DNA from: Dissulfurispira thermophila | Lineage (GTDB): Bacteria > Nitrospirota > Thermodesulfovibrionia > Thermodesulfovibrionales > Dissulfurispiraceae | Length of the DNA stretch: 64,000 bases | Assembly: GCF_014701235.1 (NCBI RefSeq) | Contig: NZ_AP022873.1 | Location: forward strand, 372,001-436,000 | Direction of reading: 5' to 3' | Shown here: piece after piece, positions 13,688-60,552 of the stretch | Layout: each line of letters begins with the position of its first letter | How positions within the stretch are numbered: position 1 is the stretch's first letter | Notes under the pieces: generated by a model | What the model saw: only the letters and a program-made list of their open reading frames with translations | Told to the model about the DNA's origin: nothing | Database searches by the model: none | Translations under genes and position numbers: made by a program

Positions 13688-13861
13688 GTAAAGGGGAGTA
13701 GCTGATACGGTAACCATCGTCAGCACGTTGAGCACTTAACAAAGTTAGGCGCTCGGCCGGTGAACCGGTTAGGAAAAAACTAACAGCAAGACCTTTACCG
13801 CAATGAGTATTTATTGGTAAACTTTTTATTAATAGATATTCAATGCGGTAAAGGTCTTTTT
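13688..13861 (+). promoter_or_regulatory. yybP-ykoY (Mn2+) riboswitch with terminator, upstream of htpX
   Basis: The aptamer spans 13688-13798. P1 strand GTAAAGG (13688-13694) pairs with CCTTTAC (13792-13798). The class signatures GGGGAGTAGCTG and ATCGTCAGCACG are present, as is the 3' GCAAGACC. The same 3' P1 strand is also the left arm of a 13-bp terminator: GACCTTTACCGCA (13790-13802) with TGCGGTAAAGGTC (13844-13856), then T5. P1 formation with Mn2+ should therefore prevent termination and turn the gene on, as known for this class. Identification rests on recalled consensus. Confidence 0.9.
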
Positions 13862-20096: not shown

Positions 20097-20235
20097 GTAA
20101 AGGGGAGTAGCTGAAACAGCGGCTATCGTCAACACGGCAATAAAGCCCGGTACCGCTGGCCAATATTAAATGATTGAATAATCTGGCAAGCGAGACCTTT
20201 ACCACGAATAGAGTCTCGTGGTAAAGGTCTTTTTT
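20097..20235 (+). promoter_or_regulatory. yybP-ykoY (Mn2+) riboswitch with terminator, upstream of carbonic anhydrase
   Basis: The aptamer spans 20097-20202: GTAAAGG (20097-20103) pairs with CCTTTAC (20196-20202), with the signatures GGGGAGTAGCTG and ATCGTCAACACG. The 3' P1 strand is shared with a 15-bp terminator, AGACCTTTACCACGA (20193-20207) with TCGTGGTAAAGGTCT (20216-20230), followed by T5. The design is the same as at 13688, with different loop and terminator sequences, so it is not a recent copy. Confidence 0.9.
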
Positions 20236-40982: not shown

Positions 40983-41057
40983 TGTTTGATGCCCAATTAA
41001 AGGAATTTTTCGTTAATCAAATATTACACATTAATTAAATATAAGTTAAGCGATTTT

Positions 41058-41221
41058 ATGAGTCAGGCACTGCTCAAAGACTTTAAAAAGTGTTGATTTT
41101 AGTTTATATGAGAGATTATAAAGGTATTGCTAAACAAGTAACCACTGACGCGGATGACGAATACAAGATACATGTATTAACAAGTGAGTGATTTAAAGTC
41201 TTTTTGTAGCACCTGACTCAT
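41058..41221. repeat. 164-bp palindromic MITE-like element
   Basis: The ends ATGAGTCAGG (41058-41067) and CCTGACTCAT (41212-41221) are perfect inverted repeats. An inner pair AAAGACTTTAAA (41076-41087) and TTTAAAGTCTTT (41192-41203) is also perfect. The arm GTCAGGCACTGCTC recurs in the hairpin at 60490-60550. Inside is a 27-codon frame (41108-41191, ATG to TGA) of unknown meaning. It lies in the 299-bp gap before the EF-G paralogue. Confidence 0.8.
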
Positions 41222-41281
41222 ATTTTTATCTTGGAATTGCTCAATTTGGGTTAGAATATAAAATTAAATAAGGGGGTTTTT

Positions 41282-48549: not shown

Positions 48550-49266
48550 ATGGAGCAAAGAATTCAAAAAATACTCGCTCAGATGGGAATAGCATCGAGG
48601 CGTAAGGCAGAAGAATTGATTATTGATGGCAGGGTGACAGTAAACGGAAAGAGGGCTATTGTTGGAATGAAGGCGGACCCTGAAAGGGACCACATAAAGC
48701 TTGATGGTAAACTGCTCACAAGGGTAGAGCCAAAGATATACTTGATGTTTAATAAGCCTGCAGGAGTTGTTACATCTCTTTCAGATCCCGAGGGAAGGCC
48801 GACTATAAAGGATTTCCTGAAAGGAGTAAAATATAGGGTTTTCCCTGTTGGAAGGCTTGATTATGACTCTGAGGGACTTTTGTTAATAACTAATGACGGA
48901 GATTTTGCTTACTCTATACTCCACCCGTCTAAAAAGATGCCAAAGACATATGTGGTCAAGGTAAAAGGTATTATAGGTGATGATGCGATAATGAAACTCA
49001 GGCGAGGTGTAAAGTTAAAAGATGGTATGACAGCGCCTGCAAAGGTTAGGAGAATAAGGGCATCAGAAAGCAACTCATGGATTGAGGTAACAATATATGA
49101 AGGCAGAAAAAGGCAGGTAAGACGAATGCTTGAGGAAGTAGGATACCCTGTAATCAAACTTCGGAGGATAGCTATAGGTAGTTTAAAAATGGGGGATTTA
49201 AAGCCGGGAGAGATAAAACATCTGACAAATGAAGAAATTAAAAAGCTGAAGGAGTTAGCACCATGA
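48550..49266 (+). CDS. rluB: 23S rRNA pseudouridine synthase RluB family
   Basis: A 238-residue RsuA/RluB-type synthase. The S4 domain (MEQRIQKILAQMGIASRRKAEELIIDGRVTVNG) precedes the catalytic GRLDYDSEGLLLITNDGDF, whose aspartate is the nucleophile, and EGRKRQVRRMLEEVGYPVIKLRR. I take ATG at 48550 because the earlier in-frame ATG (48520) lies in a repeat tract. RluB versus RsuA cannot be fully separated by eye. Confidence 0.9.
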   Translation: MEQRIQKILAQMGIASRRKAEELIIDGRVTVNGKRAIVGMKADPERDHIKLDGKLLTRVEPKIYLMFNKPAGVVTSLSDPEGRPTIKDFLKGVKYRVFPVGRLDYDSEGLLLITNDGDFAYSILHPSKKMPKTYVVKVKGIIGDDAIMKLRRGVKLKDGMTAPAKVRRIRASESNSWIEVTIYEGRKRQVRRMLEEVGYPVIKLRRIAIGSLKMGDLKPGEIKHLTNEEIKKLKELAP

Positions 49267-49276
49267 CAAATCTGTC

Positions 49277-49407
49277 TTTCAGCAAGATTGAATTAGTCCT
49301 TTGTGCAGAGTAGAACGGTATTAGAGAATATTATCCTTTTGCACACGGGATATGTTAGGGGCAGTCGTTACTTTGCCTCTCAGAGAACCCAGACAATCTT
49401 GCTGAAA
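49277..49407 (+). ncRNA. Unclassified structured element closed by a 14-bp helix
   Basis: TTTCAGCAAGATTG (49277-49290) is perfectly complementary to CAATCTTGCTGAAA (49394-49407). Inside, TGTGCA/TGCACA (about 49302 and 49341) and AGGGGCA/TGCCTCT (about 49358 and 49375) can form two side hairpins, giving a three-way junction. It ends 44 bases before aspS. It could be a leader RNA, a small RNA, or a MITE with 14-bp terminal repeats. Confidence 0.4.
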
Positions 49408-49451
49408 TCCAACTTTGCCATGTATTTTACGTTATAAAGATTGGAGGATTT

Positions 49452-60460: not shown

Positions 60461-60552
60461 TACCTAAATTGAGTGATTCTAATCTAAAAATATATGTCAG
60501 GTGCTGCGAAAAAGACAGGCTAAGTACAGAGAGCAGTGCCTGACATATATAA
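60461..60552. repeat. REP-like hairpin repeat, copy A
   Basis: Left arm 60490-60507 (ATATATGTCAGGTGCTGC) pairs with 60533-60550 at 16 of 18 positions. The element, including its left flank TACCTAAAxTGAGTGxTTCT, recurs at 62331-62412. On the minus strand it encodes the last eight residues (MSGTALCT) and stop of CoaX. Confidence 0.85.

What the first reader, a model, noticed from the sequence alone, without database searches (positions are those of the whole stretch)
49277..49407. 131-base structured element with a perfect 14-bp closing helix before aspS
The two 14-base ends are exactly complementary and enclose two smaller hairpins, giving a three-way junction 44 bases before aspS. It does not match T-box or other leaders I know. 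It is either a new leader/sRNA or a small inverted-repeat element.
Basis: seen in the sequence. Interest (0 to 1): 0.55.

Follow-up and report, generated by a model that had tools for sequence, protein, structure and literature searches.

The report
Dispersed structured RNA-like element after genes
The structured sequence before aspS is one copy of a small repeated element with a conserved RNA-like fold that sits just behind the stop codons of unrelated genes in one group of Nitrospirota bacteria, and it is not an aspS switch.

Summary
In detail: the 14-base arms at 49277-49290 and 49394-49407 are exactly complementary and enclose two hairpins, 44 bases before aspS (folding z -5.5). The aspS-leader reading is not supported: among relatives in which I located the aspS start, only this genome has the element there (1 of 24). 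It is one of 47 distinct copies in 14 genomes, nearly all in one family of Thermodesulfovibrionales-like Nitrospirota. Host genes differ, and downstream genes lie on either strand. At 31 of 37 scorable sites the nearest upstream gene is codirectional (p = 4e-5), usually ending within tens of bases. All helices covary (34 of 39 pairs changed on both sides), and two unpaired stretches, AAUUAGUC and GAGAACCCAGA, are highly conserved. The outer arms differ from copy to copy, yet match within each copy. Elements persist at some orthologous sites across genera. No Rfam family matches. Most likely it is a new family of dispersed structured palindromes, of the same general kind as ERIC, acting as a 3'-UTR RNA element. 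That function is inferred, and how it spreads is unknown.

The parts
49262..49276 (+). outer 5' arm (P1 outer part), starting at the upstream gene's stop codon; partly decayed in this copy
   Evidence: the repeat finder I1; ORF end 49266
49277..49290 (+). P1 inner 5' arm, 14 nt, exactly complementary to 49394-49407
   Evidence: corresponding helix covaries in 49 aligned copies
49291..49298 (+). conserved AAUUAGUC joining segment; the last bases may pair in P2 in this copy
   Evidence: alignments A1, A2 and consensus of A4
49296..49351 (+). P2 arm with inner hairpin P2b and conserved GAAUA loop
   Evidence: fold; P2 and P2b covariation
49357..49380 (+). P3 hairpin; loop CGUUAC conserved in most subfamilies
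   Evidence: fold
49381..49393 (+). conserved CAGAGAACCCAGA joining segment, predicted unpaired
   Evidence: invariant GAGAACCCAG in the 18 copies of A2; consensus of A4
49394..49407 (+). P1 inner 3' arm
49408..49422 (+). outer 3' arm (P1 outer part)
   Evidence: the repeat finder I1

Best explanation
This is one copy of a previously uncatalogued family of dispersed, non-coding, palindromic structured elements (about 150-190 nt with arms) in a family of Nitrospirota. SHOWN: many copies beside unrelated genes; codirectional with the upstream gene at 31 of 37 scorable sites, usually starting at or shortly after its stop codon; a covarying three-way-junction fold with two conserved unpaired stretches; copy-specific but self-complementary outer arms; presence/absence differences between relatives; retention at several orthologous sites across genera. 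INFERRED: the element is transcribed as part of the 3' UTR of the upstream gene; the RNA folds into a long closed stem with two hairpins; the conserved unpaired bases are bound or cut by a trans-acting factor, so the element sets the 3' end or stability of the upstream message and, in operons such as this one, uncouples it from the downstream gene (here aspS), as reported for ERIC in Yersinia. The copies presumably arose by a mobile or copying process and some were then kept by selection.
For: Copies: 3 in the own genome; 13 of 176 genomes of the order; 13 of 395 of the phylum sample; 47 distinct copies in 14 genomes (49 matches, 2 of them duplicates). Structure: A2 (MAFFT, not fitted to structure) covariation 0.158 against 0.104 shuffled, 0 of 500; A4 85.8% paired, 34 of 39 pairs with double changes, 0.375 against 0.137, slid controls at most 0.097; inner P1, P2 and P2b tested separately and each covaries. 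Arms: own-pair complementarity score 30.2 against 13.5 for arms of different copies, over 43 copies. An orthologous pair from two genera shows 4 of 19 arm pairs changed on both sides and 0 broken. Position: upstream gene codirectional at 31 of 37 sites, p = 4e-5, with convergent downstream genes at several sites. Retention: the element is 98% identical in G007/G008 and 97% in G007/G023, while neighbouring 60-nt windows range over 70-98% and 72-87%. RNA-strand signature in P2: 90 G.U against 25 A.C cells.
Against: No expression data. In the outer P1 arms G.U is not in excess: 11 G.U and 15 A.C beyond the model, and within the modelled outer P1 columns 2 G.U against 57 A.C, the opposite of what RNA of this strand predicts, so P1 may be maintained at the DNA level or on the other strand. 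No U-tract follows the arms on average (T fraction 0.32), which argues against simple termination. 6 of 37 sites are not codirectional with the upstream gene. Not all orthologous elements exceed their flanks: 80% for G006/G013, 83% for G008/G023, and 93% for G012/G013 where the 5' flank is 88-98%. The distribution is patchy and copies are lost or deleted.
Confidence: 0.55

Rival explanations
1. Purely selfish MITE-like element: a transposase or recombinase acting in trans recognises the folded single strand (hairpin DNA); the 3' position merely reflects where insertions are tolerated, and there is no host function.
For: Copy number 1-11 per host genome and patchy presence; site empty in same-genus G006; internal deletion derivative in own genome; outer arms almost purely Watson-Crick without wobble excess; a coreless hairpin with the same outer arm at an orthologous site in the own genome; other MITE-like palindromes in the same genome.
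Against: Orientation bias towards the upstream gene (31 of 37 sites); element more conserved than most flanking windows in the G007/G008 and G007/G023 ortholog pairs; no terminal repeat shared by all copies and no target duplication established; no adjacent mobile gene recurs among the neighbours; IS200-like Y1 transposase presence not associated (10 of 13 bearing against 10 of 18 non-bearing, p = 0.28).
Confidence: 0.3
2. aspS leader or riboswitch, such as a new T-box-like regulator.
For: Three-way junction 44 bases before aspS.
Against: Absent upstream of aspS in the other 23 of 24 genomes with a located start; neighbours unrelated; convergent downstream genes at several sites; downstream of aspS in G025 (L108); no Rfam match.
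Confidence: 0.03
3. Intrinsic transcription terminator, or a terminator hairpin invaded by the element.
For: Located just behind stop codons; some copies are followed by T-rich bases.
Against: No general U-tract (T fraction 0.32 in the 8 bases after the arms); no terminator-like site scored at the element in the window; many copies lie inside tandem gene pairs.
Confidence: 0.07
4. Free trans-acting sRNA gene family.
For: Conserved fold and conserved unpaired stretches.
Against: No promoter-like site on the + strand just before the window copy (a weak test); position is tied to upstream stop codons.
Confidence: 0.05

Closest known systems
ERIC / IRU / RU-1 elements of enterobacteria
   Same: Palindromic repeat of about 130 nt, intergenic, dispersed, co-transcribed with genes; upstream mRNA stability effect reported in Yersinia, as summarised in PMC2229807 (section read)
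   Different: Different lineage; here a branched fold with conserved unpaired junction bases, and outer arms that are copy-specific yet complementary. That ERIC arms are shared between copies is recalled, not tested here
REP/BIME elements with RAYT (Y1) transposases
   Same: Palindromic, mainly behind genes (recalled)
   Different: Much larger; no copy flanks a Y1 gene by the coordinates compared
HEARO / IscB-TnpB associated RNAs
   Same: Dispersed structured RNA that can stand without an ORF (recalled)
   Different: No RF02033 match in own genome (its positive controls were silent too); TnpB-type zinc ribbon found in only 1 of the 13 bearing family genomes
Stem-loop-containing sequence families of bacterial genomes (Cozzuto et al. 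2008, PMC2267715, abstract and outline read)
   Same: Repeated intergenic stem-loop families, possibly acting as RNA
   Different: Those came from 40 genomes; whether any is the same family was not tested

Membership tests
Known Rfam family | score above the curated gathering threshold | tested here: not met
   0 hits in the window and in 16 loci carrying other copies; best E-value hit near the element 3.4, an irrelevant family
aspS leader / T-box | conserved position upstream of aspS | tested here: not met
   1 of 24 located aspS starts (30 loci examined, 6 with no aspS start located by the pattern)
Classical MITE | many dispersed copies, short, non-coding, inverted repeats | tested here: met
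   47 copies in 14 genomes; arms
Classical MITE | terminal inverted repeats shared between copies | tested here: not met
   outer arms match within a copy (score 30.2) but not between copies (13.5) over 43 copies; the inner arm (CTGACTTTCGCAAAATT type) is shared within the main subfamily
Classical MITE | target-site duplication | tested here: inconclusive
   empty sites are too diverged to define it; none recognised by eye
ERIC | sequence homology to the ERIC consensus | not tested
   no ERIC sequence was compared
ERIC | co-transcription and effect on upstream mRNA | not testable with these tools
   needs RNA data
REP/RAYT | copies flank a Y1 transposase gene | tested here: not met
   coordinates show no copy next to a Y1 gene; nearest seen in the same contig about 5.5 kb away (G023 C11)
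HEARO/omega RNA | match to RF02033 or a TnpB/IscB partner | tested here: inconclusive
   no RF02033 match but silent controls; TnpB zinc ribbon in only 1 of 13 bearing family genomes; IscB itself not searched
Intrinsic terminator | GC-rich stem followed by a U-tract | tested here: not met

The most novel reading that the evidence does not exclude
A new class of mobile structured nucleic acid in which a conserved junction core is carried on a closing helix whose outer part is rewritten, with both strands kept complementary, each time the element is copied or as it evolves. For example, insertion could occur into the tip of pre-existing palindromes, or a hairpin-templated copying step could keep the two arms matched, while the core acts as a 3'-UTR RNA.
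Probability: 0.12. Interest if true: 0.8.

Novelty: new variant of a known kind. Interest (0 to 1): 0.45.

Why it matters
Small palindromic repeats are common in bacteria but are usually thought of as near-identical copies. Here is a family with strong covariation, conserved unpaired core bases, copy-specific complementary arms and persistence across genera. That makes it testable whether such elements are selfish hairpins or host-recruited 3'-UTR RNAs, in a little-studied phylum.

Tried and rejected
aspS leader: rejected on absence at other aspS genes and on unrelated neighbours. Rfam membership: none. HEARO: no match, but the control was silent. Viral occurrence: one exact-pattern scan of viral contigs, 0 hits. 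Y1/RAYT and TnpB partners: no adjacency, no association. Terminator: no U-tract. Pseudoknots between the conserved unpaired stretches were considered by eye; those bases barely vary, so covariation cannot test them. Insertion into a pre-existing hairpin was considered from the coreless hairpin at the metallo-beta-lactamase-fold site of the own genome; because another genus (G023) carries the full element with the same outer arm as G007, loss of the core in the own genome is at least as likely. Papers: listings only; passages of PMC12306157, PMC2229807 (its section 10), PMC11109978 and PMC8632094; abstract and outline of PMC2267715. Nothing in those matched this element; that is not proof that it is unpublished.

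Full report
Observation. The 14-base ends at 49277-49290 and 49394-49407 are exactly complementary and close a fold of -46.1 kcal/mol, z -5.5. The repeat extends outwards to 49262 and 49422. It lies between an RNA pseudouridine synthase gene with an S4 domain (rluB-like; the name is recalled, the domains come) and aspS. Its outer arm starts at the upstream stop codon.

It is a repeat family. In the own genome (one contig of 2.37 Mb) two further places match, before a malate dehydrogenase-type gene and before a CbiQ-type gene. The last is an internally deleted copy (E-value 2.3e-4). A BLAST scan of the family gave 11 of 31 genomes. A covariance model R1 built from 18 copies gave 13 of 176 genomes of the order, 12 of them in the own family, and 13 of 395 in an even draw from the phylum, including one of another family in the same class (G317, L170). 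An exact pattern in one scan of genome contigs found 21 stretches, 20 of them titled as Nitrospirae or Thermodesulfovibrionales MAGs and one 'uncultured bacterium'. Re-fetching the loci gave 49 R1 matches, two of which repeat other loci; the remaining 47 distinct copies lie in 14 genomes (with loci; L170 is not among them). Loci were equated with G-handle genomes by identical coordinates and scores. Several of the 47 are truncated or weak (L089, L099, L110, L111, L112).

Structure. On the MAFFT alignment of 18 copies, which was not fitted to a structure, 14 of 39 pairs have a change on both sides (0 of 500 shuffles reach this) and covariation is 0.158 against 0.104. On the model-fitted alignment of 49 rows (47 distinct), which leans towards the structure, 34 of 39 pairs have double changes and covariation is 0.375 against 0.137, while sliding the partners drops it to at most 0.097. 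Inner P1 (97.3% paired), P2 (73.9%) and P2b (82.3%) were counted separately, and each exceeds all 500 shuffles in covariation score. Two joining stretches, AAUUAGUC and GAGAACCCAGA, stay largely the same in the subfamilies, including copies whose stems share little sequence, although L098 and L109 depart in the second stretch and L093 in both.

The arms. Beyond the conserved inner part, the outer arms of a copy match each other (mean score 30.2) but not those of other copies (13.5, sd 3.6; 43 copies, 4 of the 47 left out as truncated or at a contig edge). At an orthologous site in G008 and G023, 4 of 19 arm pairs changed on both sides and none is broken. Which strand is maintained is mixed: P2 shows 90 G.U against 25 A.C cells, as RNA of the + strand would; modelled outer P1 shows 2 against 57, the reverse; arms beyond the model show 11 against 15. 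So P2 looks RNA-selected on the + strand, while the outer helix may be kept by a DNA-level process or for another reason. I count this against a simple single-RNA reading.

Position. Nearest neighbours were called from ORFs and tRNAs. Two of the 47 copies could not be scored (L083 at a contig edge, L103 ambiguous). The other 45 copies form 37 sites after merging orthologous ones. The upstream gene is codirectional at 31 and not at 6 (two-sided binomial p = 4e-5). Most of these elements begin within about 25 bases of the stop codon as measured from the model edge, though some lie further away, up to about 150-210 bases (L098, L111). Downstream genes are tandem or convergent. Only orthologous sites plus four single shared neighbours recur among the 47 neighbourhoods. 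One convergent gene pair carries the element in one orientation in G007 and G023 and in the other in G013.

Gain, loss and retention. Of 30 family loci with the pseudouridine synthase gene, the aspS start could be located in 24; only the own genome has this element there. In same-genus G006 the two genes abut. G008, G011, G012 and G013 carry a different palindrome in that spacer. At the metallo-beta-lactamase-fold gene site, G007 and G023 hold the element, G006 and G008 nothing, and the own genome a coreless hairpin with the same outer arm (the gene's name is recalled from its sequence, not from a family search). Where the element is kept, identity is 98% (G007/G008) and 97% (G007/G023) against 70-98% and 72-87% in neighbouring 60-nt windows; in G006/G007 it is 93% against 68-100%, and other pairs are lower: 80% (G006/G013), 83% (G008/G023), 93% (G012/G013).

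Interpretation. The family is real and is not an aspS leader. It works most like a dispersed 3'-UTR palindrome of the ERIC kind, for which an effect on upstream mRNA stability is reported in Yersinia (PMC2229807). Membership in ERIC was not tested. The strongest rival is a purely selfish hairpin element. Both may hold in turn: spread first, recruitment later. Transcription, processing, the binding factor and the spreading mechanism are inferred or unknown.

Noticed in passing
window 41057-41222 (also 60490-60550): A second, more abundant palindrome family (arms of the type TCAGGCACTGC..AAAGACTTTAAA / TTTAAAGTCTTT..GCACCTGA). The own genome shows 39 matches to this copy, with the first look's scoring limited to 40 candidates. 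It also occupies the pseudouridine synthase-aspS spacer of several relatives. Relation of 60490-60550 is by arm resemblance only.
   Followed up: partly
L153 (G000, behind the metallo-beta-lactamase-fold gene): A palindromic insertion with ends CACATCTGTCC/GGACAGATGTG flanked by a 9-base direct repeat ATTCGATAA that is single in G007: a MITE-like insertion with a target duplication (read by eye).
   Followed up: no
window 13788-13858 and 20193-20230: Two palindromes whose arms share AGACCTTTACC, perhaps a third repeat family.
   Followed up: no
L069 compared with L078 and L087: The element lies between the same convergent gene pair in three genera but is inverted in G013, with unrelated outer arms.
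   Followed up: partly
G009 (TnpB zinc-ribbon scan): 17 TnpB-type zinc-ribbon matches (15 over the cut-off) in one family member, against 0-1 in each of the other 30 genomes.
   Followed up: no
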